Below, piece after piece: positions 1,438 through 64,000 of a DNA stretch of 64,000 nt (positions are counted from its first letter, which is position 1; every line of letters begins with the position of its first letter). The position numbers were made by a program, and so were the translations under genes. Below the pieces are notes generated by a model that worked only from the letters and a program-made list of their open reading frames with translations, had not been told where the DNA came from and searched no databases. The DNA is from Pyrobaculum sp. WP30 (GTDB lineage Archaea > Thermoproteota > Thermoprotei > Thermoproteales > Thermoproteaceae), in contig CP012158.1 in the NCBI GenBank assembly GCA_001189275.1, positions 434,001-498,000 on the forward strand. The letters run 5' to 3'.

Positions 1438-1520
1438 ATATATACCATGGCATTAATTTAAGTTTTTTCTTACACTGAAGCGGTGGAATAAGATATAGAT
1501 AGATGTGACGGGGCTCCTCC

Positions 1521-5099: not shown

Positions 5100-5184
5100 T
5101 GTTCTAGTCTCTCTTCATATTTTTAACAGTTTCTTCTACCGCATAAGTATAATAATACTTTTAACAACACCTGTATAAAGGGGC

Positions 5185-44687: not shown

Positions 44688-44840
44688 AGCGTAGGAGTTA
44701 TTTAATTATTTAAACATTATCCATCATTATATATAATTATATACTAATCACAAAACAAGATGCAGGATGTGAAATATCTTTGCCGCAGTAGATTTAAGAT
44801 TTTGAATATTATTATTTTAATTTTTGGTTATTTCTATGCG

Positions 44841-45593: not shown

Positions 45594-45595
45594 GG

Positions 45596-46537: not shown

Positions 46538-47457
46538 ATCTGCCCCCTCTGGATTATATATATCGCAACTGCGTTTATGGCTAGGCCGAACAAGGTGAGG
46601 AGCAACGCACCTGCAAACAACGCAGGCACCATGTACTGATACGAGGCGGCGTTGGGGAACTGAAGCGCTATGAGCGAAGAGATGGTTATGCCGCTTTCGA
46701 AGATGTTTGTGGTGAATCTGACGAAGTTGCCACCCACCACCATGGCCACCGCAACCGTCTCTCCCATGGCTCTGCCAAGGGCGAGGAAGAAGCCGCCAAG
46801 TATGTAGTTCCGGACGTACCTCAGCTTTATAAGCGCCGCCTCGAACCTCGTGGCCCCCACCGCATATATCGCCTCCTCGACAGGTTTGGGAACTAGGGCG
46901 TAGCCCTCTCTGATCACCGCGGCGGCGTAGGGGGTGATCATTATGGCCAGCAAGACCCCAGCCGTAAAGAGCGTATATGGAGATGTCATGGTGTCGCGTG
47001 CCAGGGTGTTGACCAGGCTCTGGAGGGTAGGCCCCAGCACGAAAAGGCCCCAGAGGCCGTAGATCACCGTGGGCATCGTGGCTGTGAGGTCTACTAAGGA
47101 GCCAAAAACGCCCCTCCACCTAGCGGGTAGAATCTCGTTTATGGTCACCGCGACTCCCAAGGCCATCGGCATGGCCAGCGCCATGGCTACGGCGGACGTC
47201 AAGACCGTGCCGGTGAGAGCTTGGAGCACCCCGTAGCTCTCCCTTACGGGGTCCCAGCCGGTTTGGAGGAATACTGCTACGCCGTCGCGCGCAATTATTG
47301 GGTAGGCCTCCACGAGAAACATAACGGTCAACAGGCCGATAGTTGCTACAATAAACGCGCCGAACAGCCTCAGGCCCCACCTCAGCTTCACAAAGAGGAG
47401 CCCATATGCGGCGATTAGATACGGGATTAGAAGCACGACGAGGAGAAACCCGAGCAT
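46534..47457 (-). CDS. pstC: Phosphate ABC permease PstC
   Basis: The 307-residue membrane protein has six helices; its strings MALGVAVTINEILPARWRG, DLTATMPTVIYGLWGLFVLG and KPVEEAIYAVGATRFEAAL (EAA loop) and the ALGRAMGETVAVAMVVGGN end are typical of PstC. It pairs with PstA. It starts 21 bases after the pstS stop. Confidence 0.9.
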   Translation of the reverse strand: MLGFLLVVLLIPYLIAAYGLLFVKLRWGLRLFGAFIVATIGLLTVMFLVEAYPIIARDGVAVFLQTGWDPVRESYGVLQALTGTVLTSAVAMALAMPMALGVAVTINEILPARWRGVFGSLVDLTATMPTVIYGLWGLFVLGPTLQSLVNTLARDTMTSPYTLFTAGVLLAIMITPYAAAVIREGYALVPKPVEEAIYAVGATRFEAALIKLRYVRNYILGGFFLALGRAMGETVAVAMVVGGNFVRFTTNIFESGITISSLIALQFPNAASYQYMVPALFAGALLLTLFGLAINAVAIYIIQRGQI

Positions 47458-47478
47458 GGGGAAAAATACGGGTTGTTT

Positions 47479-48822
47479 TTATGGCTTTACGAGGTTAAGC
47501 GCCTCCAGACCTATCTTGGCGACCTCGGGCGGCAACGGGATGTAGCCCTCCACTACGTTCCCCTGCTTCTGGCCCTCGGTGAGCACCCACTTGAAGAACT
47601 CCTTTAGAAGCGCCGCCTTGGTGGCGGCGTCGCCGTAGCCCTCAGCCGCGTAGTCCTTCCACAAGAAGACATATACAAAGGACATTATGGGATAGCCCCG
47701 CGGCGGGTTAGAGAACTCTATGGACACGGGATTCCAGTCGGCTTCGGGCGCGGGCTTTGATCCGTATCTCCTCGTGTACCTCTCAAGGCCGGCGGCGGCG
47801 CCCATGGCCACGTTCTCCGTCGTGGGGAAGTAGTACTTCCCGTCGTTGTCGTTGCGCACGAAAGCAACGCCGCCCACTTGGTCGTATTTATCCTTGTTTT
47901 TAGCCCAATAGGCGAACTCTATGTAGCCTATGGAGTACGGGGTCTGCAGAACTGCCTGGGCCACGCCCTCGTTGCCCTTGGCGCCGGTTCCCTTGGCCTT
48001 CTCGTCGGCGGGCCACTTCACCGTGTAGCCCCAGCCCACCGTCTGGTTCCACGGCTGGTAGGCCCTGGTGAGATACAGCGTGAAGGCGGCCGTGGTGCCG
48101 GAGCCGTCGCTTCTGTGAGCCGCCACGATGTCCTTGCACGGGAGCTTATCGGCGAGGCCGGGGTTAAGCGCCTTAATCCTCGGGTCGCACCACTGCTTGA
48201 TCTCGCCCATATAGATGAGGGCGATGACTTCGGCCGTCAAATTCAGGTACTTCCCCGTCTTTTGATAGGCTATCTCGGGCACGTTGTAGGTCATCACGAT
48301 TGAGCCTATGACGACGGGGAACTGGACAAACCGGCCGGCAATCTGTTCATACTTGTCTCTGGGCATCGGCACGTCTGAGGCGCCGAAGTCTAGCTTCTTC
48401 TCCAGGAACTGGGCGGCGCCGGCGCCGGACCCGATGGACTGGTAGTTAACTTGGATCTTGCCTCCTGTGACTTGATAAAACGTCTTAGACCAGGTAAACA
48501 TCTGAGGAGCCACAAACGTCGAGCCGCCCCCAGTCAACGCACCGCTCAGCCGACTCGGCACGGATGTCGTAGTAGGCGTTGGGGAGTTGATGGCTGTAGG
48601 CGTTGTGGTGGGTTGCGACGGGGAGGTGGTGGCTGTGGGCGTAGTGGCAGGCGTTGTTGTAGGAGTTGGGGTGGGGGTGGCTGTAGGCTGAGAGGCAGGC
48701 GGCGGAGTGGTGGGTTGCGGAGACCCGCCGGGTGGCATCGCGAGGAGGGCTATGGCCACGACGGCCACTATGGCTACCGCTGCTATTATTGCTAGAAACT
48801 TGGGGTTTTGGGTTGGACTCAT
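47479..48822 (-). CDS. pstS: Phosphate-binding protein PstS
   Basis: The 447-residue protein from ATG 48822 has an N-terminal hydrophobic helix (about residues 9-29) and a Pro/Thr-rich linker of about 70 residues, like the LivK-type protein. The phosphate-binding domain follows. Binding motifs include TGGGSTFVAPQMF, SIGSGAGAAQFLEKKLDFGASD and AAHRSDGSGTTAAFT, which hold the Ser, Thr, Asp and Arg that grip phosphate. The longer frame to 48867 lacks a good promoter. It is the first gene of pstSCAB and should rise under phosphate limitation. Confidence 0.9.
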   Translation of the reverse strand: MSPTQNPKFLAIIAAVAIVAVVAIALLAMPPGGSPQPTTPPPASQPTATPTPTPTTTPATTPTATTSPSQPTTTPTAINSPTPTTTSVPSRLSGALTGGGSTFVAPQMFTWSKTFYQVTGGKIQVNYQSIGSGAGAAQFLEKKLDFGASDVPMPRDKYEQIAGRFVQFPVVIGSIVMTYNVPEIAYQKTGKYLNLTAEVIALIYMGEIKQWCDPRIKALNPGLADKLPCKDIVAAHRSDGSGTTAAFTLYLTRAYQPWNQTVGWGYTVKWPADEKAKGTGAKGNEGVAQAVLQTPYSIGYIEFAYWAKNKDKYDQVGGVAFVRNDNDGKYYFPTTENVAMGAAAGLERYTRRYGSKPAPEADWNPVSIEFSNPPRGYPIMSFVYVFLWKDYAAEGYGDAATKAALLKEFFKWVLTEGQKQGNVVEGYIPLPPEVAKIGLEALNLVKP

Positions 48823-49495
48823 GGGCCGTGGATGGAGGTATGGTAAAAACCTGTTTGCTATGTTCAACAGCGGATATATAGATGCGGTAAGGCATAGCTT
48901 GAGGCATAATTCATATGAATGTTATCTGTGTCCTGCTGTGGTGGGGAAGTCGTCGAGCCTGGGGGTCTTACCTTGTCTGTCCAAGACGCCGCATCGTTGT
49001 CTTCTTGGTCGGTATCAGGTGGGCTGCTGAAAACGACGCCGAGGCGCGGCGGAGAGGTAGGGGTAGGAGTAGTGGATTTGTTACAGGTGGTCTTTATCGT
49101 ATGGCCAGGTATTGATTTAGGCTGGGGATCCGTGGCGACGGCCTGGTTACGGCCGTGACCATGTTATTCGGCGAGCCGTGTGGGTCGAGGGAGGGGTCTC
49201 TATGGGTGTCCAACGTCATACGCGACCTACGCTGTTTGGGTGGAGAGACGTCGCTGATGTGGATGTCGCCGGTTGGTTACCGTAACTGTTGTTGGAAACC
49301 GGCGCCGGGCGCTCAGGACCCACGCGAAAGGTCCATTGTTTATAGACGTAGGAGGTGGGAATCCGCTGGACGGGGGTCGGTGGGTTACGAACCTTATGCA
49401 ATACGGCGTTCTGCGCCGTATTAATGACCTGAGGCGGAGTCCATGCGGCTTGTTGCTCGGTGTAGGCCGCCTGGCAACCCGACCGCGCAACGGGT

Positions 49496-49508
49496 GGGGG
49501 GGGGGGGG
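49496..49508. repeat. Homopolymer tract of 13 G
   Basis: Thirteen consecutive G residues, followed by T and three more G, lie 83 bases before the DUF4143 ATPase gene and outside any gene. Long mononucleotide runs are prone to slippage. Confidence 0.7.
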
Positions 49509-49534
49509 TGGGCGCGGCTCTTGGGGTTTATAAG

Positions 49535-49561
49535 ACTTTGTGGAGTTTGGGTCTACAAAGT
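49535..49561. promoter_or_regulatory. Inverted repeat before second DUF4143 ATPase
   Basis: ACTTTGT (49535-49541) and ACAAAGT (49555-49561) are perfect inverted arms with a 13-base spacer. The TATA-like TTTTTAAGG begins at 49561, about 26 bases before the ATG at 49591. The repeat is therefore placed to act as an operator. Its sequence differs from the repeat at the first paralogue. Confidence 0.4.
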
Positions 49562-49590
49562 TTTTAAGGTATTGTGGAGTGTAAGTAAAC

Positions 49591-50916
49591 ATGATTGAGG
49601 ATTTTAACCCTTGGTGGGCGTCTAGGGAGGGGGTTGAGGAGGTGGAGATCTACCGTCGGTATGCGGAGTCTGAGGTTAGGTGGAGGCCTGACCTCATCGA
49701 CAGGATGTCGCTGAGGCCGTTTGCGCTGAACTTTGTCTTTGGGCCTAGGCAGGTGGGCAAATCCACGGCGCTTATACTACTGGTGAAGGAGCTTCTGGAG
49801 AGGGGCGTCCATCCGAAGTCTATCTTCTACCTCTCCTGCGACGCGATTGCGGACTACAGGGAGCTCGCCGAGGTGCTGAGGATGTACCTAAAGGTGAGGA
49901 GGGCGGAGGGCATCTCCTCGTCTTACATACTGCTCGACGAGGTGACGTACCCCAGGGAGTGGTTTAGGGCGGTCAAGAGCATGATAGACATGGGCTATTT
50001 CAGAAACGACGTGTTGGTGCTGTCGGGCTCCCTCTCCATCTCGGCGAGGAGGGAGGCCGAGACCTTCGCCGGCAGGAGGGGCCACGGCAAGAACTTGGTC
50101 ATGTTGCCTCTGCCCTTCGGCAGGTTCGCGGAGCTCCTCGGGCTCAGGCTTCCCCGGGGCGGGCTGGAGCACGTGCTCGGCGGCTACATGCGTTTTCTCC
50201 AGTACGTCTCGCGCCTCGTCGACGCCTTCGAGACGTACCTCGCCGTGGGGGGCTTCCCCAACGCCGTGCGGGAGTACTTCAAATACGGCAAAGTCTCAAC
50301 AGCATACGGCGACTTCGTCTCGGCGGTCCTCAGCGATTTGAACAAGCTCCGGAGAAGCGAGACGTTCTTCAAGCTCACCGTGAGGGCCATAGTGGAAAAG
50401 ACGCCGTCTAGGTTCAGCTACCACACGATCTCCAAATCGTTCGGAGTCGGGACGGTCAAGACCGCCGTAAGCTACGTGGAGCTACTCGAGAAGATGTTCC
50501 TCCTCAAGACGGTATACGCCATGGACGCCGCGGGCGAGGTGCAGCCGAGGAGGGAGAAGAAGTTCTACTTCATCGATCCCTTCATCTACCGCGCCTTCGC
50601 CCGCTGGACCATGGCCAAGCCCCCAGACGAACACGCCCTGGCCGAGGCGGCCGCCGCGACCCACCTAGCCCGGCTGTACGACGTGTTCTACCTCAGACAC
50701 GACGGGGAAATCGACGCGGTGGTGAGAAGCGGCGACGCGCACATAGGCATCGAGGTGAAGTACGGCAGGGCCGAAGGCGCCAGGAGAGTCCTCGGCGTCG
50801 TTAAGCGGATCTACACGCTGAGCAGAGACTCCGCAGACGAGGGAGTCATCCCAACCCCCCTCTTCCTAGCGCTACTGGACATCCCCCAGACCGTGGAGGT
50901 GCCCATACTCGCCTAG
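49591..50916 (+). CDS. AAA-type ATPase with C-terminal DUF4143 (nuclease-like) domain
   Basis: The 441-residue paralogue of 19171-20361 shares the N-terminal NPWW motif, Walker A GPRQVGKST (51-59), Walker B ILLDEVTYPREWF and the sensor string LVLSGSLSISARREAETF. A winged-helix segment (SRFSYHTISKSFGVGTVKTA) and the C-terminal EIDAVVRSGDAHIGIEVKYG come after, giving the D...ExK pattern of nuclease folds. Function is unknown. It stands alone next to mobile-looking DNA and a toxin-antitoxin pair. ATG 49591. Confidence 0.78.
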   Translation: MIEDFNPWWASREGVEEVEIYRRYAESEVRWRPDLIDRMSLRPFALNFVFGPRQVGKSTALILLVKELLERGVHPKSIFYLSCDAIADYRELAEVLRMYLKVRRAEGISSSYILLDEVTYPREWFRAVKSMIDMGYFRNDVLVLSGSLSISARREAETFAGRRGHGKNLVMLPLPFGRFAELLGLRLPRGGLEHVLGGYMRFLQYVSRLVDAFETYLAVGGFPNAVREYFKYGKVSTAYGDFVSAVLSDLNKLRRSETFFKLTVRAIVEKTPSRFSYHTISKSFGVGTVKTAVSYVELLEKMFLLKTVYAMDAAGEVQPRREKKFYFIDPFIYRAFARWTMAKPPDEHALAEAAAATHLARLYDVFYLRHDGEIDAVVRSGDAHIGIEVKYGRAEGARRVLGVVKRIYTLSRDSADEGVIPTPLFLALLDIPQTVEVPILA

Positions 50917-51269
50917 AGGCCGGCCGCGAGCCTGTAACCGACACGGCAAGAACCCGCCCCTCTATCGGATACAAACCCAGCCACGTCCGCCGCGGCCTCC
51001 TCTGCCTCGTGTGTATAGAGGGGGCCATGTCGAGACTGGATAGACGGTCGTGGAGGTTAAGCGGGTAATGGATGCAAGGCCGACAGGTCCTACGTCTTGT
51101 GGCCGGTACGCGTAAACGCCGCGAGCATACCGTAGCAGTCCATGGCCGCCGCTAGGGGCTCGAAACAGCGGCGGCGCCGACGCCGAGCGGCCGGCCTCTC
51201 AGCGGCTACTCGTATTAGCAATCGGCATCGCCCGCTCTAGCCAGCGCGGCGCTGGAGAGCTGGCGCAAG
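50917..51269. other. Stretch without recognisable genes
   Basis: Frames are short and unlike protein. No RNA gene or promoter with a gene behind it was seen. It separates the ATPase from the toxin-antitoxin remnant. Confidence 0.35.
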
Positions 51270-51663
51270 TTAGGGGTCTCCCGTGGCCTCCAAGATCTTC
51301 AGGGCGAGGTTCGCCAGCTTTCTGTACTCCCGCCCCGCGAGTATCTGCGAGATCCTCAATATATCTACAGAGGTGTAGCCGTGGACCAGCACGTTTCTAA
51401 ACCCCACCACCGCCCTGTACAGCCTCAAGTCCTCCGGAGAGAAGACGCGCCTCCTCGCCAACGCCGCGCCCGCCTCCGCGTAGCTTTGGGCTGGCTCGCC
51501 CATCAAGGCCGCAGCCCTCTGCACCATGTCTATCAAGACCTGCGCCTGAAGCTGAAGCGCGTGGAGGAACTTCATGATGTCCCTTGTCGTTTAGGTCGAA
51601 GCCCTTAGACACCTCCTGGCCTAACTCTGTGAGTTTAAGCAGGTATTCAGCCAGCGTCTTTAT
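51270..51663 (-). pseudogene. HepT-like HEPN ribonuclease toxin, frameshifted
   Basis: The intact ORF 51270-51575 encodes 101 residues ending with the HEPN catalytic motif RNVLVHGY (R-x4-H-x-Y). Its expected N-terminal helix lies upstream in another frame, IKTLAEYLLKLTELGQEVS then KGFDLNDK (51663 to about 51585). Removing one G from the GGG near 51582-51584 joins them as NDKDIMKFLHAL, which matches the normal HepT helix order. HepT proteins are RNases neutralised by the MntA nucleotidyltransferase, which AMPylates the HepT tyrosine. The shortened ORF could still make a partial domain. It directly follows mntA with overlap. Confidence 0.6.
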
Positions 51664-52058
51664 GCGCGCCGTCGCGCCGCTAAGGCCTCGTGGAGCTTCT
51701 TGGCGTCTATTTCCCAGTCTTGGCACACGTTGAAGAGGCGGAAGACGAGATCCCAGTCCTCCACGTGCAGAGGCACACCTCTCAAAGCCTCCAGAACCAG
51801 TGGGCAGGGCGTATCGGGCCCCACCTCGACTAGGTCTATGTAGTCCTCTCTGACGCCAAGCCACAGCGCCAGCTCGGCCAGCAACTCGGAGTAGGTCTCC
51901 AAATCCGCCCTGGGGATAGCTATGTCTACATCCTCCGCGGGGCCTCCCGCAACGGCCGAGCCGAAGAGGAAGGCAAACTTCACGTAGCGGCCCCAAGGAA
52001 ACTGGCGAAGCTTCTCAAGAGAAACCCTATAGCACCTCCCCACCAAGATCTCCTGCAT
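51660..52058 (-). CDS. MntA-like nucleotidyltransferase antitoxin
   Basis: The 132-residue minimal nucleotidyltransferase has the motif GSAVAGGPAEDVD (Gly33-Ser34, then Asp43 and Asp45). This matches the GSx10DxD signature of MNT proteins that AMPylate HepT toxins. ATG 52058 is used; a longer frame reaches 52118. An AT-rich box (ATTAAAATACTTT) lies about 25 bases upstream. It overlaps the broken hepT frame, the usual operon order of archaeal HEPN-MNT systems. The antitoxin looks intact although the toxin does not. Confidence 0.75.
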   Translation of the reverse strand: MQEILVGRCYRVSLEKLRQFPWGRYVKFAFLFGSAVAGGPAEDVDIAIPRADLETYSELLAELALWLGVREDYIDLVEVGPDTPCPLVLEALRGVPLHVEDWDLVFRLFNVCQDWEIDAKKLHEALAARRRA

Positions 52059-52879
52059 GGCGCAAATTGAGCGCTTATTAAAATACTTTCCCAGGTCCGC
52101 CGTCAACCCCCTCGTCAACTAAGTTCAACCATCTTAAAAAGCGGGACGCCTCCAGAGCTTCAAGTCACCACGGCTAAGGGGGGCAGGCGTGCCACAGCCC
52201 CTCCAACCCCCGCGAAAGAGACGCCCATCCACCCAGCCTCCCCGCCGACTCGAGCAGTCAAGCGCCGAACGCTAAGAAAGAGCACCGTAAACGCGGCAAG
52301 GAGCAGACGTGCAGGCTCGACGCAGTCACGCATCTACGACGTCTTAGGCTGGAGACTATTTCAGGCACCTAGGAGCTCCCTAAGATATCTGCCAGTGACG
52401 GCTCCTGCAGGTCTCTAACAGAGCAACTCTTAACCCCTCTTCGAGGTGCTTGATTACCGCCCTGCCTACCTACCTCTCTAAGGCCTTGCCCTCTATTGAT
52501 TCGAATTTCCGGGCCTCGCTGGGCTCCACGCCCGTTGTCCCAAGTCTCTCCCTCCTCATCCGCGTGCACGTGCCGCCTGCATCCAACGATCAGCTCGGTT
52601 TCTGCTCATTTACTGCTGACCAGTGGATTGCAGATCTTGACCGCGGCCGCCGTGCGGCCCATCGTCATCCTTAGATTTAAGTTATGGCTAAGCCTTGGGT
52701 TGCTTTTGGTTGAGGTAGATGCTTTTCGGTGCTGAGGACCCCCCCGGTGGGTGGGATACGGGACCTCGCCAAGCTGGTGCACCTTGATGCCCCCAATAGG
52801 TCTTCCTCTCATCTGCACCGGAGGAGCCCTTATATAGTCTCGCCAAGGAGGTTCACAACAGGCGCCGGGGCGGGGGCCG
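52059..52879. other. Long gene-poor stretch with a possible small remnant
   Basis: No intact gene. On the minus strand between about 52560 and 52380 protein-like pieces appear in shifting frames: EPSEARKFESIEGKALER and then VIKHLEEGLRVALLETC. They recall a small charged antitoxin-like protein, but stops and a frame change separate them. No RNA gene seen. Confidence 0.35.
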
Positions 52880-53290
52880 CTACGGGCTTGTGAGCCTTTC
52901 GAGGGCGCGTTCGGCGCCCTTGCGGAAGTGGGAGGATATCCAAGGCTTGAGGGGGATGAACAAGGCGCTGATTGTGACATTCCAATCGCTGACGAGGACG
53001 CCGCTGGCGACGTAGTTCTTCACGACGCCTCTGAAGGGGCCTTTGACGTAGTTCAGCAGAACCTCCCGCCTAGCCTCGTCGACGGCCGCCTCGGCGTACC
53101 CCACGTTGAGGGGTCCAGGGAAGGCAAAACTTATCTTGAGGGAGTATCTGCCCGAGCTGACGCCGAGCACCTCGACCCGCCTATGGCCGCCCCAGTACTT
53201 AGGCATGTCCTCCAGCCTAGAGAGGCGGCGCCAGACGGCCTCCGCGTCGCCGAGGCGACGCTCCACCCTGAACTTGACAGCCCCCAACAC
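52880..53290 (-). CDS. SRPBCC/START-like ligand-binding protein
   Basis: The 136-residue protein has the pattern of the SRPBCC (polyketide cyclase/START-like) fold: VKFRVERRLGDAEAVWRRLS at the start, DMPKYWGGHRRVEVLG, a curved-sheet centre, and a C-terminal helix (FRKGAERALERL). Such proteins bind hydrophobic ligands in a helix-grip cavity. GTG 53290 lies about 25 bases from ATTAAAAACT (53311-53320), consistent with a leaderless mRNA. Function is unknown. Confidence 0.62.
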   Translation of the reverse strand: MLGAVKFRVERRLGDAEAVWRRLSRLEDMPKYWGGHRRVEVLGVSSGRYSLKISFAFPGPLNVGYAEAAVDEARREVLLNYVKGPFRGVVKNYVASGVLVSDWNVTISALFIPLKPWISSHFRKGAERALERLTSP

Positions 53291-53610
53291 GAGGGGCCCA
53301 CCGTACTGACATTAAAAACTTATTCCACATCGGCGGTACCCGTAACCCCCTCCACGGCCCGTGGAGCCGATGCGCTGAGGTGTGGATGGCGACGTCCCGT
53401 CTGCTACCGTAGAGACGCCGGCAACACCTTCAAAAGCCTTGAGCCCTCTCTGAAACAGGCGTTGCGGAGTACATACCTGCGGCGCCGACCACCGCCGCGT
53501 GCAGATGCGCCCGCCATCGGCGCAGAAGGCCGAGCTCCTCCTATGCGGCCAGCCGATGAGGACTCCCCCGGAGGGAGTAAGCGTTTTTTACACCAGCCAG
53601 CGGATGAACC
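53291..53610. other. Intergenic stretch at the edge of an AT-richer island
   Basis: Nothing gene-like beyond the promoter of the 53290 gene at its left end. Base composition falls from GC-rich to AT-richer at about 53600, where the next genes begin. Confidence 0.35.
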
Positions 53611-54270
53611 GTGATTAGGATCGATAAAGCAAAGTGGAGAAGTGCATTAATCAGGTCTGCCATAGTAGTGCTGGTGTTTGTAATACTACTTGAAATCACG
53701 TATATGTATATCAACATCAGGGCTAATAGCCTAAGTCGACCCGGGTTCGAATACGTGTTGCTTAATGAGAACGATGCTTATGCGTTGATCATCGATTCTC
53801 TGCCAAACGTTAAGTATAGATTAGATGTGAGACTCGAGGTTACTAGAGGCTCAGCGCTGGTTATTCTTAATAACGGCAGTAAGATCTTGATCGAGGCGGG
53901 TCTTATATCTCCGCCCCCCATTGAGATAACCCTAATTAGGGATTTAAGATACGACGGCTTCATCTCGCGGGGTCTTTGGTCTTATACGTGGCTCAACATT
54001 AATGGAAGCTTGTACAAATCAGTCCCCCCTTCAATACCTGGCAACTTAACGTTTAAGGTCATCGAGGTGTCCTTCGAACTATCCAGAGAGAGACCCGTTG
54101 ACGCAAAACTGATCCACCTAGGCCCGCTTTCAGCCTCAACGCTAGGTAATGCCACATATTTGGTAGAAGTGCTCAGCGGCGCGGCCGGCCCAACCCCAGC
54201 CTTGATAGTGGTCGGCCTATCTGGTGGAACCATTATCAGACTGTCGTGGTACTGGGTGGTTGTGGCATGA
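53611..54270 (+). CDS. Single-pass membrane protein, unknown, in AT-richer island
   Basis: The 219-residue protein starts with GTG 53611. It has one N-terminal membrane helix (about residues 14-34, AIVVLVFVILLEITYMYI), then an extracytoplasmic domain rich in beta strands with several N-x-S/T sites, and a hydrophobic C-terminal end (IIRLSWYWVVVA). It has more Ile, Asn and Ser than neighbours and AT-richer codons. I do not recognise the family. Its stop overlaps the next ATG (ATGA), so it is the first gene of a three-gene operon with a membrane protein and a winged-helix protein. Confidence 0.65.
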   Translation: MIRIDKAKWRSALIRSAIVVLVFVILLEITYMYINIRANSLSRPGFEYVLLNENDAYALIIDSLPNVKYRLDVRLEVTRGSALVILNNGSKILIEAGLISPPPIEITLIRDLRYDGFISRGLWSYTWLNINGSLYKSVPPSIPGNLTFKVIEVSFELSRERPVDAKLIHLGPLSASTLGNATYLVEVLSGAAGPTPALIVVGLSGGTIIRLSWYWVVVA

Positions 54271-54923
54271 TGAGCGACGTGGCTGAGAAGGTGCTAAGGC
54301 TCCGGGACGCGTTAGAGACCGTGGAGAGCATCAACAACCAGCTTGATGAACTGCGCAAGATCTTCATAGTGGTGCTAACCGTGGCCGTAGCGACGCTGGG
54401 GATCGCCAGCATCTTGTGGTACATGTGGGGGACCACATATCCTCAATTGTACAACATGTGGGTGTTGGTGTACCTCGTGTTGTTCTTCTTTCCGCTGGCG
54501 TATGCGGCGCGCAGGTTGGACAAGGCCGCCGAGGTCAAGGGGTTTTACCAAGATTGGGGCGAGAAGCTTAAGGAGGGGGAGCTGGGAGTATTGGCTATAC
54601 TGGAGAGTCTTGACTGGGACTACGTAGAGTATAGAGTCAACAGGGCTAAGACGCTCTACCCAATCCTGCTCATCATAGACGAGGCTCTGTGGATAGCGTT
54701 CCTGCTGATCTTCGTAGCGCCTGCCTACGGGTTTCTCAACAACCTCCTATTTCACACAATAGACACCCCGGTGCTGGTTGGTTCAGTGGTTTTGGCGGTG
54801 GCCATAGCCCTAGCCATAACCTGGGGCGAGGTAGTCGACAAATTCAAGACCCTGTGGAGCCTCGACTCGTTGCTATGGGAGGTTAGGTGGCTCTACCATG
54901 AGTACAGAAAACTTCAAACCTAA
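54267..54923 (+). CDS. Four-helix membrane protein with coiled N-terminus, unknown
   Basis: The 218-residue protein has an N-terminal charged, coiled-coil-like helix (RLRDALETVESINNQLDELR). Two membrane helices follow (about 34-56 and 70-90), then a cytoplasmic middle segment and two further helices (about 137-157 and 170-190). No enzyme motif is seen. It starts in the ATGA overlap with the previous gene and overlaps the winged-helix gene by 26 bases. Tight overlaps suggest the three products work together. The family is unknown to me. Confidence 0.65.
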   Translation: MMSDVAEKVLRLRDALETVESINNQLDELRKIFIVVLTVAVATLGIASILWYMWGTTYPQLYNMWVLVYLVLFFFPLAYAARRLDKAAEVKGFYQDWGEKLKEGELGVLAILESLDWDYVEYRVNRAKTLYPILLIIDEALWIAFLLIFVAPAYGFLNNLLFHTIDTPVLVGSVVLAVAIALAITWGEVVDKFKTLWSLDSLLWEVRWLYHEYRKLQT

Positions 54924-55194
54924 CCTCTACGTACTGGCGAGGATAATCAAAGCCCTGATCGACAACGGAGCCATGAAGAGAACCAACCTGGCCCAGGCCT
55001 CGGGGCTGTCCTACGACAAGCTCCAGAAGTACCTAAACTGGATGATCGAAAAAGGCCTGATCACGGTAGACGGCGACGGCTACGTCAGCCTAACCAGGGA
55101 AGGGGCAAAGACCTACGACGAGCTAGTCCAGTGGATAATAAAATACGTCGGAAGCCTGAGATTGGACAGACGCTGGCGCCCACGCCCCACCTAA
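54898..55194 (+). CDS. Winged-helix DNA-binding protein
   Basis: The 98-residue protein is a compact winged-helix domain of the archaeal HTH_45/PF14947 style: RTNLAQASGLSYDKLQKYLN forms the helix-turn-helix, then GLITVDGDGYVSLT the wing. A short basic tail RLDRRWRPRP follows. Such proteins often regulate their own operon. It is the third gene of the island operon, overlapping the membrane gene by 26 bases. Confidence 0.75.
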   Translation: MSTENFKPNLYVLARIIKALIDNGAMKRTNLAQASGLSYDKLQKYLNWMIEKGLITVDGDGYVSLTREGAKTYDELVQWIIKYVGSLRLDRRWRPRPT

Positions 55195-55467
55195 CCCATC
55201 AACCCCAACCGCGCCGAGCCCCTTAAAGTGTAAGCGCGCGGCAAGCGGGGATCATACGGCGAGTTTCAAGATACGTGCGGGTTTAGGACAGCCGATAAAG
55301 AGGCACCCGCAACCACTGTCCACATCACGGCTGTAGTGTATTAGCATGAGCTTGTGTCGCTAATCATATCCCACAGTACATCCACCTAAATGAAGCGGTG
55401 TTGATTAATGATGTACGTCTCGACATCCTCAGGCTTATCCCCCTCGTTTTATAGATGCTCTTATGCA

Positions 55468-56937
55468 CTATCTAATGGGTTCCAGCAAGCCAGAGTCGAA
55501 CAATTCGCTTAAAGTCATCTTGTGCTTCTTAAGCGCCTCTTCAGCCTCCTTCCCAAGCCGGTAAGCCTTCGTTTCCCCGCCTTCGAGCTCTAGAACAACG
55601 ACCTCATTCACGCTTTTGGCATAGTCGAGAGGCACGGTGGAGTGTGTGATCAGTATTACGAAGGCGTCGCGGCTCCTAAACTCGTCCATCAAGAACTGCT
55701 GAAGCTCAGGGTGTAAACTATTTTCAAACTCATCAATAACGATAACGCCAGCTCTGCTGAGAAGCGACTCAATGATTAGGGTCTTAAGGACGCCGCTAGG
55801 TATGGAGGCCGGAGTCAACGTAGTGCCGTCAGCGACGACCTTCAAGAAAACCCTACCGTCCTCAGTAACGCTGAAACCTAGCCTTAGATCATTAGCTCCG
55901 ACGAACGCGTACCTCAACGCCTCCACAAGGGACTCGGAAACGCTACCCTCGGCAATTGTGTAGAGAAACGGTACAAAATTAGAGACATCCGGCGACAACC
56001 TATTCTGTTTAGTAAGGGGCTGGGGGCTTCTAATCGCCTTCCAATCAATATCCTTAATGACTGTGATGCTGTTTATAAATTTGCGCATCTCATTAATAGC
56101 TTCTGACAGATACCTTTCAATATAGTCTATAATGTATTCTGAGAAATAAATTATTATTTTTATATTGGTTACCTCCTCAACAGTTATTTGTTCTTGGATT
56201 GTTTTTACTAAGTGAGCCATATCTTTTCTAGTGGTGACAAACATAAGACGGTGTACGCCCTTTGTGATGAGGGGCATAGCTTCTTGGATCGCCCTAAGCT
56301 TAACACTCAGCCTTAATGAGTCAGATTTAAGTGTAATCCTGGGTGTTTCGCTTGTAAATAATTTTTTGAAGGCTTGCACAATTTCTTCGAAAGCTTCCTT
56401 ACTTATGGTGGCTGTCAATTCCCCCTTATCAGTATCAATGCTTGCGTCTAAGCCGTTACCTTGAGCCCTAAGGCTCTCTTTCAAAATTTGGAAACGCCCT
56501 CCCTTACCTGTAATGTATATTTCATAAAAGATTTTAGTAGGCGCTTTACATGTATCTATTATTACAGAGAGTGATGGCTTTCTATCTTTATATTCTAGTT
56601 TTAATATTGTACTGCATGATTTCTCTGTGCATTCTTCTGTATTTTTATATTCAAGTTCCAGACCAAGTATAATTGGGAGGTTCTCATCGTGTTTCCATAC
56701 TACTTTGTCGTAACCCCACCACTTTAGGAATGGGTTTGTGGTCCTTCCCATAGCCCACTCCACAGTGCTCGTCAACAGCTCGAAGGCTTCCGTTAAGGCT
56801 GTTTTACCTGAGCCGTTGGTCCCCACGACCATTGTTAGTCTCGTTGGGAATTCAAGCGTCACGTCTCTTAACGACTTGAAGTTCTTGACCCAGAACTTCT
56901 TCAGCTCCACGCACTCGTTGACGACCTTTAGATCCAC
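55468..56937 (-). CDS. OLD/RecF-like AAA ATPase
   Basis: The 489-residue ATPase belongs to the ABC/RecF-like AAA_15/AAA_21 group. It has Walker A VGTNGSGKTAL (about 33-43), a long divergent middle region (about 150-330), a signature-like stretch in TLTPASIPSGVLKTLIIESL, Walker B VIVIDEFENSLHP and a switch ILITHSTVPL. No C-terminal TOPRIM nuclease is visible, so it differs from full OLD proteins. It lies in the AT-richer island, convergent to the winged-helix operon. Related ATPases serve in defence or repair, but function here is unknown. Confidence 0.78.
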   Translation of the reverse strand: MDLKVVNECVELKKFWVKNFKSLRDVTLEFPTRLTMVVGTNGSGKTALTEAFELLTSTVEWAMGRTTNPFLKWWGYDKVVWKHDENLPIILGLELEYKNTEECTEKSCSTILKLEYKDRKPSLSVIIDTCKAPTKIFYEIYITGKGGRFQILKESLRAQGNGLDASIDTDKGELTATISKEAFEEIVQAFKKLFTSETPRITLKSDSLRLSVKLRAIQEAMPLITKGVHRLMFVTTRKDMAHLVKTIQEQITVEEVTNIKIIIYFSEYIIDYIERYLSEAINEMRKFINSITVIKDIDWKAIRSPQPLTKQNRLSPDVSNFVPFLYTIAEGSVSESLVEALRYAFVGANDLRLGFSVTEDGRVFLKVVADGTTLTPASIPSGVLKTLIIESLLSRAGVIVIDEFENSLHPELQQFLMDEFRSRDAFVILITHSTVPLDYAKSVNEVVVLELEGGETKAYRLGKEAEEALKKHKMTLSELFDSGLLEPIR

Positions 56938-56984
56938 GTAACCGTACGGTGGTTATAATTAAGTTTTTATGCCCAGAATCCCGG

Positions 56985-56995
56985 CCCCCCCCCCC
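56985..56995. repeat. Homopolymer tract of 11 C
   Basis: Eleven consecutive C residues lie 48 bases upstream of the OLD-like ATPase start, outside coding sequence. Together with the 13-G tract at 49496 it is a candidate slippage site. Confidence 0.7.
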
Positions 56996-57353
56996 AATTT
57001 GTACTTTTCCGGAGAACTATGTTTACAGGGGCTTACGAGCCCAGGTTAGAGAACTTAGTTATAGGCAACCCATATAACCGTAGGGAAAACTGTGAGAACC
57101 CCATCAGCAAGCTCCATGGACGGTGTTGGGTAGCAAGAGCCTGTTGAATCGGCGTTTAGATGCTTGTTTGCAAGCACGTATCTCATCCTTAATCAAAGCC
57201 TTGACGCGTTCACCGACTCCCTCAATTATCCTCGCATCTGACTGCGTCGAGAACGTTTATGTTGGCTCTAGCCAAGACCCGATTCCTCGGAGCTTGCGCC
57301 TGAGGAGCCTCACGAGTTGTTTATGGAGCCGAAACGCCCCAGCAACCTGCCCC
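56996..57353. other. Stretch with decayed coding sequence
   Basis: On the minus strand a broken frame around 57245-57125 reads RIIEGVGERVKALIKDEIRA followed by CKQASKRRFNRLLLPN, which looks like real protein but lacks a start and is preceded by a stop. The family is not recognised. Nothing else is seen. Confidence 0.35.
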
Positions 57354-57635
57354 TCATCTGCTCCTCTTGACCTCCTCGACGTAGGGCCGCGCCGGCTCGG
57401 CGTACATCCCAGCTACCTCCGGCGGCTTGCCTCCGACTTCCACGTAGGTGGCCTGCGCGGCCGAGGCCGCCGCGCAGTATATGCCCTCGCCCGTCGAGTC
57501 GTCCACGAGGCCCGCCGCCTCTATGGAGACCGCCACGCGGCCCGGCGAGAGGTCGACGTCTACGATGCCCAGGATTACGCCGAGGAGGAGCCACTTCTCG
57601 AAATAGGGGAGCGACCAGAGCCTGAGGGCCCGCAT
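57354..57635 (-). pseudogene. Chimeric ORF: ClC start fused to geranylgeranyl-reductase-like fragment
   Basis: The first 25 residues ([19 protein letters not shown] and on) are identical to the start of the ClC protein at 60680-62038 and come with its promoter. At 57562 the sequence switches to a different protein containing AAGLVDDSTGEGIYCAAAS, the AGLVxxxTGEGI motif of FAD-dependent geranylgeranyl reductases. The fragment ends after about 70 residues. Neither parent is complete, so no known activity is expected. Confidence 0.65.
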
Positions 57636-57801
57636 GGGCCCGTCGCCGGCAACCGGTTTTTAAGCCTTTCTGCGGCTTAGCCTTTGGTGAACCCCAGCAC
57701 GTCGGCGAAGTTGGCCATATCCAGCAGGCCGTGTCCGCTGAAGCTTATCAGCACCACCTTCCTCTCGCCGGTCCTCTTGGCCTCGTCTGCCACCTCCTTG
57801 A
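57562..57801. repeat. 240-bp direct repeat, copy 1 (of the ClC-trpB junction)
   Basis: This block matches 61965-62204 at 239 of 240 positions (T at 57788 against C at 62191), in the same orientation, 4403 bases apart. It carries the first part of the ClC gene, its promoter, the intergenic gap and the last 39 codons of trpB. Flanking sequences are unrelated. Confidence 0.9.
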
Positions 57802-58036
57802 TCCCCTCCGCGGCCTTGGCGAGCTCCCTGACAAGCCTAATGAGGGAGTGCATACGGGGGTAGGCACCTGTCTTGAGGAGGAGCTTGTACTTCAACATAA
57901 GCTGGCAGTACTGCTCCACGCCGAACGCCGCTAAGTCGTATTCGCCCTCGGCGTACAGCCGCTCCGCGTTCCTCAGAAACGCCTCAGCCCTCAGCCGGAG
58001 GAGCTCCGCCTCCTCGAAGCTCACGCATGGAAGCAA
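57677..58036 (-). pseudogene. Chimeric ORF: HEPN domain fused to TrpB C-terminus
   Basis: The 119-residue ORF starts as a HEPN-domain protein ([39 protein letters not shown] and [13 protein letters not shown]). After about residue 80 it changes, at 57801, into the exact C-terminal 39 residues of TrpB (ending [19 protein letters not shown]). The HEPN part is shorter than the usual 120-130 residues, and no nucleotidyltransferase partner lies beside it. Whether the fusion folds is unknown. It was created by the 240-bp duplication. Confidence 0.7.
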
Positions 58037-58090
58037 CCACAGACTTAAAGCAGTTGTCCCGAAGCCCCAACCCCCAGAAGCCGGTTGCCG

Positions 58091-58540
58091 CTACCCCAGC
58101 GCCTCCTCGAGGGGCACGACCTCCCTCTTGCTTTCGATGAGCCACATCTTGAGCTCCTTGGCCCTCTGGACGGCCGAGGGCCCTGCGACGAGGGTATAGA
58201 GGACGGGCACCAGCCCGCCGGAGTTCTTCTCCGGCCGCCTCCTCTGGAGTTCTCGTATTCTTTCAACGGTCCTCTCCACGTCCCTCCGGCCGGCCCTAAC
58301 TTTGGCCTCGCCTACTGCGGTGATGGCGCCGGCGTTGCAGTAGACGTCAAACTCGTAGTCAGCGTCTAGACGCAACCTCTCCGCCGCGCGTCTATAGCCC
58401 CTCCGCTCAAGCAGATACTGGACCATCTCACGGCCACTATCCTCCACGCTGATGGCTATAGCTTCAAACTGCTCCTTAGTCGCTATCTTGTCCTCAATAC
58501 GCTTTATATCTTCCTTCGTGGCGAACCTCTCCTCAGCCAC
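58091..58540 (-). CDS. PD-(D/E)XK nuclease-like protein (DUF3782-type), C-terminal part
   Basis: The 149-residue ORF has a coiled start with repeated ATKED/ATKEQ motifs. A nuclease-like core follows: YEFDVYCNAGAITAVGEAKV has the Asp and the E-x-K of the PD-(D/E)XK fold, then helices RDVERTVERIRELQRRR. Such proteins are numerous in Thermoproteales and of unknown function. The upstream ORF 58552-58845 carries the matching coiled-coil N-terminus in another frame, so the pair is probably one broken gene. Taken alone it would start with GTG 58540. Confidence 0.62.
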   Translation of the reverse strand: MAEERFATKEDIKRIEDKIATKEQFEAIAISVEDSGREMVQYLLERRGYRRAAERLRLDADYEFDVYCNAGAITAVGEAKVRAGRRDVERTVERIRELQRRRPEKNSGGLVPVLYTLVAGPSAVQRAKELKMWLIESKREVVPLEEALG

Positions 58541-58551
58541 CTCTTCAGTTG

Positions 58552-58845
58552 CTACACCGCCGTCCCTAGGACCTGCTTTGTGGCGTATTGCCTCAGATCC
58601 TCCTTGGTGGCCATGGCGTTCTTGATCTCCTTCACCTCCCTCTCCAGCCTGGCCGTCCGCCTCTCCAACCTCCTCAGGTCCTGCTTGGTGGCGACGTCCA
58701 GCGGCACGGCCACGACGCCGGCCACGACGGACGCCAGCTTGAGGGCGAGGTCGCGCCGCGAGGAGGCGGCATCGGCGATGAGGTCTATGAGGAACTCCGG
58801 CTCCCGCCTCGCGGGCTCCCTCAAGGCGGTCTTCAGCTCCTCCAC
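58552..58845 (-). CDS. Coiled-coil protein, probable N-terminal part of the DUF3782-type gene
   Basis: The 97-residue ORF has a helical start (PEFLIDLIADAASSRRDLAL) and a coiled coil (LERRTARLEREVKEIKNAMA) with ATKQD and ATKED motifs like those at the start of the next ORF. After ATKQ the frame gives only VLGTAV and a stop, whereas the neighbouring frame reads PRDGGVATEEVAEERF into the nuclease-like ORF. A one-base deletion near 58562-58575 would explain the split. The combined protein would have about 245 residues, normal for the family. Confidence 0.6.
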   Translation of the reverse strand: MEELKTALREPARREPEFLIDLIADAASSRRDLALKLASVVAGVVAVPLDVATKQDLRRLERRTARLEREVKEIKNAMATKEDLRQYATKQVLGTAV

Positions 58846-58887
58846 GTCAATACCTAAAGGATATAAAAGCTAGTTGCGGCAGTTTGA

Positions 58888-59703
58888 GTGGTCTTCACGC
58901 CGTTTCACCTAGGCCCTGGGCTCCTTCTCGCCATGGCGCTCCGTCGTTGGCTGAGCCCGGCGGCGCTCGTCGCCTCGAGCGCAGTTATCGACTTAGAGCC
59001 GTTTCTCCATCTAATGGCCACGGGCATGCCGGCGCACGGGATCGCCCATTCCCTCCTCGGCGGAGTTGCCCTCGGCGCTGTGACGGGGCTACTCGCCGCG
59101 AGGATACGCCTGCTCTGGCGCTTCTTCGGCCTAGAGGGATCCCCGCGGTCAACCCTTGCGGGGGCTGTGGCCGGGCTTATACATGTGCTCATAGACGCGC
59201 CGCTGTACCCCGAGATGCCGCTTTTGTTCCCTCTGGGCGGAAACCCGCTCTACGGCGTCGGCGGCTTTATCGATGGCATACCGCGCCTGTCGGTCGATTT
59301 AACGGCCGTATGCGCGTTGATGTACGCAGTAGCACTTCCGCTCTACGCCTGGCAACTCTCCAAAGAGAGCGTGGAGAGGGGACGCGCGATGATTGCCTCA
59401 GTCCTTGGAGTAGCCTTGTTGCTCCCAGTTCTCGTGGCGTTGGATAGCCAAGCCCAGCGAGCCCTAGGGGCCGTGGGGCTGGCCGCGCTGGCCGCCGGCG
59501 CGTCTCTAAGCTACGTGCGGCCCAGGCCCGCCCTCTTCCTCGCGTATTTCGGCTTGCTTGCAGATACATCGTTCTTCGGGCTACTGTGTCTCTCCGACCT
59601 GTTCGGACCGGCCTCCCGTGCGGCGTGTATAGCCGTGGTCGCCAGCGCCCTTCCCTTTGCGTTGTTAAGAATAAACGCCCTCCGTTCAAAGGCCGCGTTT
59701 TAG
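58888..59703 (+). CDS. YdjM/DUF457-like membrane metal-dependent hydrolase
   Basis: The 271-residue protein starts VFTPFHLGPGLLLAMALRR and has seven to eight hydrophobic helices. Conserved polar residues are D36 and E38 in SAVIDLEPF, GIAHSLLGG and LIHVLIDAPLYPEMP, the His/Asp pattern of YdjM-type predicted membrane metal-dependent hydrolases. The substrate is unknown; some relatives act in lipid or cell-envelope metabolism. GTG 58888 is the first codon fitting the family start. It is a single gene. Confidence 0.68.
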   Translation: MVFTPFHLGPGLLLAMALRRWLSPAALVASSAVIDLEPFLHLMATGMPAHGIAHSLLGGVALGAVTGLLAARIRLLWRFFGLEGSPRSTLAGAVAGLIHVLIDAPLYPEMPLLFPLGGNPLYGVGGFIDGIPRLSVDLTAVCALMYAVALPLYAWQLSKESVERGRAMIASVLGVALLLPVLVALDSQAQRALGAVGLAALAAGASLSYVRPRPALFLAYFGLLADTSFFGLLCLSDLFGPASRAACIAVVASALPFALLRINALRSKAAF

Positions 59704-60181
59704 CCCAGATAGGGGCTTGGATGGAAGTATGTCGAGCCGCCGACATGCCGCCATCCGGCCTAGTGTGGATATAGATATATGCACTACCGGCGGCCCTCTG
59801 CGTCACGTGGGCAACTTCGTCGGCCGGCGCATCGAGAACTATTGCGCATGCTATCCGGGGTGGCCCGGGAATAATCGCCGTGTTAAGTAATCAATATTTG
59901 CCCTCTCGCTCGTATCTGCAACACGGATATGAGTATAGCGACACTCGATACATCGCGGCGCCTCCGTGCAATACGTCGGACGCGGCCCTTGAACCCGATA
60001 CTGCCGACACGACCGCAAGAACCAACGCGGCGAGGACAGCCGCCAGGGCGGAGCCGCCTGGGTCTCTGTAGATCGACGACCGAAGTGTTTTTAGTTGTTT
60101 TTGACATCTAGGGCTTCGATCAACGGCCTTAGTTTAGGACAGAGAATCGTTCCACGCCTTGAGAACCGTATGTTGGAACCG
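59704..60181. other. Intergenic stretch with a possible membrane-gene remnant
   Basis: On the minus strand near 60075-59900 one frame reads SALAAVLAALVLAVVSAVSG then RAASDVLHGGAAMYRVSLYS without a usable start codon. It may be a decayed small membrane gene. No other feature is seen before the tRNA-Ser gene. Confidence 0.35.
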
Positions 60182-60299
60182 TGGCGCCGGGGGTGGGATC
60201 TCTGGGCGGCTCGGCCTGAGCCCACGCCCCTTTGCGGGGACGGGATACCCCGTCGACAGATCTCAAGTCCCGCGCCTTGGGCCGCTCGGCCACCCCGGC
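60182..60299 (-). tRNA. tRNA-Ser (anticodon TGA) with two introns
   Basis: On the minus strand the gene opens GCCGGGGTGGCCGAGCGG. It ends with the matching acceptor strand CCCCGGC, G73 and an encoded CCA. The anticodon stem CGGGA/TCCCG holds the loop CTTGAG|A with anticodon TGA, and a 15-base intron at 60247-60261 in the canonical 37/38 position. The T-arm GTGGG/CCCAC encloses 23 bases rather than 7, so a 16-base intron lies in the T-loop (within 60198-60220). The mature form would be about 87 bases including CCA. The spliced T-loop (CTCAGAT) is unusual. The AT-rich box 60320-60331 is at promoter distance. Confidence 0.82.
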
Positions 60300-60319
60300 T
60301 GTTACCTCCAGCTCCGCGG

Positions 60320-60331
60320 TATTTAATTTTT
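60320..60331. promoter_or_regulatory. AT-rich box between divergent tRNA genes
   Basis: TATTTAATTTTT lies about 26 bases before the tRNA-Ser 5' end on the minus strand and about 35 bases before the proposed tRNA-Leu 5' end on the plus strand. It may serve as TATA box for both. A second AT stretch (AAAAACTTTTAT, 60343-60354) is closer to tRNA-Leu. Confidence 0.4.
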
Positions 60332-60359
60332 GCCTCGGCGGGAAAAACTTTTATGCGCG

Positions 60360-60503
60360 TGCGGTATGGACTATCGGCTGGGTGCCCGAGCCAGGTCAAA
60401 GGGGCAGGTAGGGGCATCAAGCCACTGGCTATGCTTAAGACCCTGTGGCGTAGGCCCGCGTGGGTTCAGGCGACGCCGCCTCCGAATCCCACCCCCGCAT
60501 CCA
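60360..60503 (+). tRNA. tRNA-Leu (anticodon TAA), apparently with three introns
   Basis: The core GGTGCCCGAGCCAGGTCAAA is typical of archaeal tRNA-Leu. The anticodon arm CAGG+G CTTAAGA CCCTG forms only if 24 bases (60409-60432) are removed at 30/31. The T-arm GTGGG TTC+GAAT CCCAC forms if 16 bases (60468-60483) are removed after C56. The 3' acceptor strand CCCCGCA pairs with TGCGG+GG only if 16 bases (about 60365-60380) are removed from the acceptor stem. The mature length would then be 88 bases with CCA, normal for Leu. Doubts are the U1-A72 pair, the T at 73, and the unproven acceptor intron; a defective gene is possible. Confidence 0.58.
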
Positions 60504-61964
60504 CGTGGACATCTCCATCGCCGTCATCGCGGCCGAAACGGCGGGCTTAATTGTGTCCGGTCTCGGCGGGATCGGCCCTCATGCACGCCCCCATCCTGCG
60601 GCGCGATTGCCGAGGCCGGCGTCCCCGACGCGCGGACGCGATCCAGGCGGTCGGGCCTACTGCGCCGGCCGGCTCGGCCTCACCCGCCGGCGTGAGCCGG
60701 CGAGTCCCTCCTGGTGGGGACTTGAGATCGGTAGATGGAATCGTTTCCCGTGACTATGTAGGACACGGCCACGGCGATCACAGCAGCCGGGAGTAGTTGA
60801 AAGCTTCCCGTCATCTCGACGACCATTACGGTCACAGATAGGGGGGCCTTGGCGGCTCCGCCGAACAGAGCGGCCATCCCGACGATCACGAAGGGGGCTA
60901 TTGACGGCGCCAGCTGGGGGAAGGCCAAGTGGAACAGCAACCCAAGACCCCCTCCCACGAAGGCCCCTATGAACAGACCCGGGGCGAACACGCCGCCGCT
61001 TCCTCCGGAGCCCACGGTCAGCCCAGTGGCCACTATCTTGAGGAAGGGCAACAGGGCGAGCAGATAGACCGCGGGCAGAGCCGACGGGAAGGAGTCGAGT
61101 CTCCCATATTCGAGGAGGCTTATCCAGCCGTAGCCTACGCCCATAACCTCGGGGGCCAGCAACGCTATCGCACCGGTCAAGAGCCCGCCCAACGCAGGCT
61201 TGAGGTAGGGAGGCACGCGGAGCCTCTTGAAGGCGTTATGTATGCCGTAGAACGCCCTTATGTAGAGCAGGCCCACCAGCCCCGCCGCGGCTCCCAGCAC
61301 GGCGTAGAGGGGGAGGGCCGCCGGGTTGAACGCCTCGGTGTAGTTGCCGAATATGGGGGCGAAGCCCACGACCGAGCCGAATATGGAGTAGCCGACCGCG
61401 GACGCCACGAGCGCGGGGTAGATCACCTCGACCTCCATGTCCCTCCTGTAGAGTATCTCGGCCGCCAGCAACGCTCCCCCTAGAGGGGCCTTGAATATAG
61501 CCCCTATCCCGGCGCCTATGCCAACGGCTACGGCGATCCGCCTATCCTCGGGAGAGAGGCCCAGGAGGTCGGCCACCATGGACCCCAGGCTCGCCGACAG
61601 TTGCGCTATCGGTCCCTCGCGCCCCGCACTTCCGCCGCTCCCTATGGTGACGGCAGAGGCCAACAGCTTTATGGGCGCAACCCTCCACCTAATCCTTCCC
61701 TGCCTGTAGTGGTAGGCGGCGATAGCGGCGTCGGTGCCGTGCCCCTCGGCCTCAGGCGCCAGGTAGTACACCAGAAGCCCCGCGATGGCTCCGCCCGCCG
61801 CCGTGATTAGAGGGATCAGATAATATCTGTCCGCGCTGAATTGATACTCCAAGGTCCCTCCCTCGCCGAGAGGCCTGGGCATCGAGAGGCCCGCCAGCCT
61901 CTCCAGGAAGAGGTATTCGGCCCCCCTCAGAGCGAAGTAGAAAGCCAGCGCCGAGAGGCCGGCC

Positions 61965-63770
<1,806 letters not shown>

Positions 63771-64000
63771 CTATTTGCCGCAGAGCTTCTCCGGCTTGGG
63801 CGGCGGAGGCGTGGGCAGGAGGTCGAGCTGAACCACATCGCTGACGGCGATAGCGCGGTAGAGGCGCTCTGCGCATTCGCCATCGCCGAGCTCTACGCCG
63901 AGCGCGACCACTGGGGGCGGCGTCTTGCCGAAATAGACCCCATATACCGTGAGGTAGGGCTGGGTGGTTGCCACCGCGAGGTAGTAAAGTCCGCTCAACC
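63771..64000 (-). CDS. Unknown protein, 5' end probably outside window
   Basis: The minus-strand frame ends with TAG at 63771-63773 and is open to the window edge. About 75 residues are visible, including YYLAVATTQPYLTVYGVYF and a Pro-rich tail (LLPTPPPPKPEKLCGK). A TTG at 63998 could be a start, but the frame probably continues beyond. I do not recognise the family. Confidence 0.5.
   Translation of the reverse strand, partial: LSGLYYLAVATTQPYLTVYGVYFGKTPPPVVALGVELGDGECAERLYRAIAVSDVVQLDLLPTPPPPKPEKLCGK

What the first reader, a model, noticed from the sequence alone, without database searches (positions are those of the whole stretch)
57562..57801. 240-bp templated duplication of the ClC-trpB junction created two chimeric genes
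The block at 57562-57801 equals 61965-62204 at 239/240 positions, same orientation, 4403 bases apart. At the source it spans the trpB end, the gap and the ClC start. At the copy it is spliced between a geranylgeranyl-reductase-like fragment and a HEPN gene, giving a HEPN-TrpB-tail ORF and a ClC-start-reductase ORF that inherits the ClC promoter. Unrelated flanks and near identity suggest a recent copy-paste event such as template switching in break repair, without transposon marks. Recombination between the copies would delete both tRNA genes and ClC.
Basis: partly seen in the sequence, partly recalled or inferred. Interest (0 to 1): 0.75.

Follow-up and report, generated by a model that had tools for sequence, protein, structure and literature searches.

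The report
Old gene-fragment duplication, recently re-copied
A 240-base stretch spanning the end of one gene and the start of the next occurs twice, 4.4 kb apart, in a heat-loving archaeon; one edge of the second copy is also present in a sister species, so the duplication began long ago and the two copies were made alike again recently, which is an interesting but ordinary piece of genome debris.

Summary
In detail: window 57562-57801 equals 61965-62204 at 239/240 bases, and it is the only direct repeat of at least 60 bp in the window. The interpretation (one recent copy-paste that made two new genes) is only partly right.

A sister-species MAG in the same genus (G008, Pyrobaculum-like) carries the same left junction, reductase fragment joined to the ClC start at the same base. 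Its 70-bp left flank is 83% identical and its block about 90%, so that junction predates the species split. The two window copies differ at 1 site where about 23 are expected, so they were homogenised or re-copied recently.

The right junction (HEPN to TrpB tail) is known only here, sits on a short microhomology, and looks younger: the HEPN part has about 3 private amino-acid changes where about 15 are expected if unconstrained since the split. The two edges therefore have different ages.

G008's contig reads reductase-block-trpB: an untrimmed copy, the predicted deletion product, or an assembly cross-join. The ClC-start/reductase ORF is broken in G008, the HEPN is truncated without its nucleotidyltransferase partner, and both tRNAs in the interval have second copies elsewhere. 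Interest is low.

The parts
57562..57801 (.). Copy 1 of the 240-bp repeat: ClC codons 1-25, ClC promoter/gap, trpB 3' end
61965..62204 (.). Copy 2 (source context) of the repeat at the intact trpB-ClC boundary
57345..57561 (-). Decayed internal fragment of an FAD-dependent (geranylgeranyl reductase-like) gene; intact genes are in Thermoproteus-like genomes. Its 70 bp next to the block are shared with G008
57354..57635 (-). 93-aa chimeric ORF, ClC 1-25 + reductase fragment; broken in G008
57677..58036 (-). 119-aa chimeric ORF: N-terminal ~75 aa of a HEPN protein + TrpB tail (~41 aa); C-terminal HEPN part and MNT partner absent
57793..57806 (.). Right junction, with short microhomology (CAAG(G)AGGT) between trpB and the HEPN paralogue
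60680..62038 (-). Intact ClC-type (Voltage_CLC) protein gene, 452 aa; native N-terminus lies in the repeat
62080..63384 (-). Intact trpB gene (PALP; closest to Thermoproteus, ~90% aa); start as used for the searches
60185..60299 (-). tRNA-Ser(UGA) with introns; a second Ser(UGA) gene lies at G000:C1:686619
60376..60499 (+). tRNA-Leu(UAA)-like gene with introns and 3 mismatches in its acceptor stem; an intact Leu(UAA) lies at G000:C1:1487903
   Evidence: direct reading

Best explanation
The block is the remnant of an old duplication of the trpB/ClC-start boundary. The ClC start was joined to a reductase-gene fragment before this species split from G008 (shown). The two copies were then kept or made alike by recent ectopic gene conversion or re-copying from the functional trpB-ClC locus (inferred from near identity). 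The right edge is younger: most likely a microhomology-mediated deletion removed the rest of copy 1's trpB together with the 3' end of a HEPN gene and its MNT partner, leaving 240 bp fused to the truncated HEPN (inferred). The repeat needs no dedicated machinery and probably has no function. It leaves the 4.4 kb between the copies (HEPN remnant, two spare tRNAs, ClC) open to loss by homologous recombination.
For: Left junction: G008:C75 aligns through reductase fragment and whole block (86% over window 57492-57801; left 70 bp 83%, block 90%) with the join at the same base, in a contig collinear with the window over pst genes (92%) and an SRPBCC-like gene (91%). The 25 ClC codons are native to ClC, since homologues align from residue 4-10. 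Recent homogenisation: 1 difference between copies, about 23 expected on one branch since the split (mean dS 0.19; flank distance 0.195; P about 3e-9). Right edge young: dN 0.04-0.07 against dS 0.85-1.05 for chimera versus intact paralogue, about 3 chimera-private amino-acid changes against about 15 expected (P about 2e-4). Beyond the 240 bp, G008 reads on into trpB, not HEPN. Intact HEPN/MNT pair at G000:1736469 and in G006.
Against: Only one other genome carries the junction, a 74%-complete MAG, and its contig ends 18 bp past the block, so G008's copy number and right flank are uncertain. A HEPN-TrpB-tail protein that is still used would also explain the low dN, and then both edges could be old. 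At the slowest rate seen (SRPBCC gene, dS 0.108) the HEPN test weakens to P about 0.03. That copy 1 was once longer rests on those 18 bases alone. A right-junction microhomology this short could be chance.
Confidence: 0.55

Rival explanations
1. Ancestral G000-like arrangement with both junctions old. G008 then lost the 4.4 kb by recombination between the two copies, and the two G000 copies are kept alike by gene conversion.
For: G008's reductase-block-trpB order is exactly the product of recombination between the direct repeats, and no orthologue of the HEPN, tRNA pair or ClC was found in G008. G008 also lacks window 53508-57491, which cuts into the reductase fragment, so this locus has suffered deletion in G008. 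The tRNAs are redundant, so loss is tolerable.
Against: The HEPN part shows too few amino-acid changes to have been a dead truncated gene since the split. G008 is only 74% complete, so absence is weak evidence.
Confidence: 0.22
2. One recent copy-paste (template switch in break repair) in this lineage made the whole repeat and both chimeras.
For: 239/240 identity up to both edges, unrelated flanks, microhomology at the right junction, no transposon marks. A recent re-copy that used the old ClC-start remnant as its homologous end would be a version of this.
Against: The left junction is present at the same base in G008 at 83-90% identity, so it cannot be recent.
Confidence: 0.1
3. A G008-like single block is ancestral, and a 4.4-kb circular or foreign segment (HEPN...tRNAs...ClC) was integrated in G000 by a single crossover in the block, duplicating it.
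For: It yields exactly the observed order and edges, with an old left edge and a new right edge. trpB and the tRNA pair look Thermoproteus-like in sequence or order.
Against: Recipient and donor blocks would have to be nearly identical although the recipient's ClC start had been non-functional since before the split; it needs homogenisation anyway, plus a donor with a matching trpB-ClC join.
Confidence: 0.1
4. About G008 only, and compatible with the readings above: C75's end is an assembly cross-join at a collapsed repeat, so it says nothing on a deletion form or an untrimmed copy, although the left junction stands.
For: The contig ends 18 bp past the block, and no flanking contigs are in the bin.
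Against: A collapsed repeat should also break the contig at its left edge, and it did not. If true, it implies that G008 too has two near-identical copies, which supports concerted evolution.
Confidence: 0.3

Closest known systems
Concerted evolution / ectopic gene conversion between intragenomic repeats in prokaryotes (PMC6053082, PMC5485169; titles and abstracts seen)
   Same: Paralogous copies in one genome are more alike than either is to the other species' copy
   Different: Here the repeat is a 240-bp gene-boundary fragment, not a whole functional gene or rRNA; it rests on one pair of species
Deletion between direct repeats by homologous recombination (general knowledge)
   Same: G008's arrangement is the exact expected product
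   Different: Not proven, since G008's contig ends just after the block
HEPN/MNT toxin-antitoxin pair (general knowledge; Pfam PF05168, PF01909)
   Same: N-terminal part of the chimera matches the HEPN profile and has an intact paralogue with its MNT partner
   Different: C-terminal part and MNT partner missing; TrpB tail instead

Membership tests
Concerted evolution by gene conversion | Within-genome copies more alike than between-species orthologues, with the duplication older than the split | tested here: met
   99.6% within, about 90% to G008; left junction shared. That the duplication itself is older is inferred from that one junction
Concerted evolution by gene conversion | Second species also holds both copies | tested here: inconclusive
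   Only one match in the 74%-complete G008 assembly
Single recent templated insertion | Both junctions absent from relatives | tested here: not met
   Left junction present in G008
Transposon or integron insertion | Terminal inverted repeats, target duplication, transposase or integrase at the copy | tested here: not met
   No inverted repeats of at least 60 bp in the window; the only inverted pair of at least 25 bp in 50000-64000 is the tRNA pair; no transposase or integrase among the proteins scanned near the copy
Functional HEPN/MNT toxin-antitoxin | Full HEPN domain plus adjacent nucleotidyltransferase | tested here: not met
   HEPN profile 1-79 of 117 only; no MNT next to it, while the paralogue in L100 has both

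The most novel reading that the evidence does not exclude
The HEPN-TrpB-tail fusion is a selected, working protein whose tail is repeatedly rewritten from trpB, so that gene conversion with a housekeeping gene keeps updating part of a HEPN protein.
Probability: 0.06. Interest if true: 0.55.

Novelty: new member of a known kind. Interest (0 to 1): 0.22.

Why it matters
It is a small warning that near-identity of two repeats does not date their origin: one edge of this repeat is older than the species split, while the sequence inside it was refreshed recently. It also gives a test case for gene conversion between short repeats, and for deletion between them, in Pyrobaculum-like archaea.

Tried and rejected
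No plasmid match to 57100-58100 and no Rfam family in 57000-63000. ARAGORN found no tRNA at the site, with or without longer introns; the tRNAs were read by comparison instead. A third weak block match at G000:432746 (40 bp, 83%) lies in an unrelated coding frame with a similar peptide and was dismissed as chance. The genome-contig scan with TrpB returned no Pyrobaculum, so no further close relative was gained. A genus-wide search held only 11 genomes, and only G008 shares the junction. Essential tRNAs as an argument against deletion in G008 was considered and dropped once second Ser(UGA) and Leu(UAA) genes were found. The dN/dS values that one search printed for G013 and G011 came from a wrong reading frame and were not used.

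Full report
What is there. Window 57562-57801 and 61965-62204 are a 240-bp direct repeat with one mismatch (57788 T / 62191 C), same orientation, offset 4403; identity drops to background at once on both sides. It is the only direct repeat of at least 60 bp in the 64-kb window. In the own genome (G000, one contig, 1,993,257 bp; window = 434001-498000) the block has just these two full matches; a third 40-bp match at 432746 falls in an unrelated reading frame and was dismissed.

Contents. Read on the minus strand, copy 2 holds the last 41 codons or so of trpB, a 41-bp gap with a TATA-like CTTAAAAACC about 20 bases upstream of the ATG, and the first 25 codons of a 452-aa ClC-type protein (Pfam Voltage_CLC, E 1e-97; TrpB: PALP, E 4e-35). 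The 25 codons belong to ClC, because ClC homologues in other genomes align from residue 4-10 onwards. At copy 1 the same 240 bp lie between a decayed internal fragment of an FAD-dependent reductase (46-51% aa identity to intact genes in Thermoproteus-like genomes) and the first ~75 aa of a HEPN protein (HEPN profile 1-79 of 117). An intact paralogue of that HEPN with an adjacent nucleotidyltransferase (MNT) sits at G000:1736469, and another in G006. The truncated HEPN has neither its C-terminus nor an MNT partner.

The left junction is old. Of the 11 genomes held for the genus, only G008 (a MAG, 200 contigs, 74% complete) has the block. Its contig C75 is collinear with the window: 3-3923 = window 44705-48618 (92%, pst genes), 4513-5157 = 52860-53507 (91%), 5159-5462 = 57492-57801 (86%). 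The last alignment crosses the reductase/ClC junction at the same base: 83% identity in the 70 bp of reductase fragment, about 90% in the block. Coding genes between the two genomes have dS 0.11-0.27, mean 0.19, so block and flank diverged along with the species. The join therefore predates the split. In G008 the ClC-start ORF has lost its ATG (ACG), carries an in-frame stop, and lacks the TATA region through two 3-bp deletions, so no conserved chimeric gene is indicated.

The sequence inside the block is young. If copy 1 had evolved freely since the split, about 23 differences from copy 2 would be expected on one branch; there is 1 (P about 3e-9; with the slowest gene's rate 13 expected, P about 3e-5). 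The copies were homogenised or re-copied recently. The one difference is a change in copy 1, since copy 2 and G008 share the other base.

The right junction looks young too. The HEPN part and its intact paralogue differ with dN 0.04-0.07 and dS 0.85-1.05, and only about three amino-acid changes (positions 35, 36, 58) are private to the chimera when other genomes are consulted; about 15 are expected had it been a dead fragment since the split (P about 2e-4, or 0.03 with the slowest rate). Either the fusion is younger than the split or the fused protein is still used. The junction shows a short shared motif, CAAG(G)AGGT, between trpB and the HEPN paralogue. G008 reads on into trpB for its last 18 bases, not into HEPN.

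What happened. The best account is an old duplication that placed the trpB/ClC-start boundary next to a reductase fragment, recent homogenisation with the functional trpB-ClC locus, and a recent deletion that fused what was left to a HEPN gene. The contig ends 18 bp past the block, which hints at a repeat problem, but it was not broken at the block's left edge, which speaks against one. The data do not decide. G008 also lacks window 53508-57491, a loss that cuts into the reductase fragment and so is more simply a deletion in G008.

Consequences. The tRNAs between the copies are a Ser(UGA) and a Leu(UAA)-like gene. G000 has another Ser(UGA) at 686619 and an intact Leu(UAA) at 1487903, and the window's Leu gene has three mismatches in its acceptor stem (anticodons read by eye after allowing for introns). 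Loss of the interval would cost ClC and spare tRNAs, not essential ones. Thermoproteus-like genomes have a Leu(UAA) just after trpB (G016) or a Leu/Ser pair 2 kb after it (G015), and TrpB is ~90% identical to theirs and missing from the other Pyrobaculum-like genomes, so trpB and the tRNAs probably came together, by transfer or shared descent.

Verdict. Real and correctly described, but not one recent copy-paste and not evidence of new genes. It belongs with known duplication, gene conversion and deletion.

Noticed in passing
60376-60499 (+) and 60185-60299 (-): A divergent pair of multi-intron tRNA genes, Leu(UAA)-like and Ser(UGA), extra to the genome's own copies; the Leu gene has three acceptor-stem mismatches and may be a pseudogene.
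   Followed up: partly
53508-57491 and 49025-52860: Stretches present in G000 but missing from the collinear sister-species contig G008:C75; the first holds an AAA-type ATPase gene (55468-56937). The region seems prone to gain or loss.
   Followed up: partly
57335-57411; L106:3117-3193: 77 bp of the reductase fragment are 95% identical to a stretch in a Thermoproteus-like MAG (G018), far above the similarity to the intact reductases; both look like fragments.
   Followed up: partly
62080-63384: TrpB of a type ~90% identical to Thermoproteus homologues and absent from the other held genomes of the genus except the G008 fragment, suggesting transfer.
   Followed up: partly
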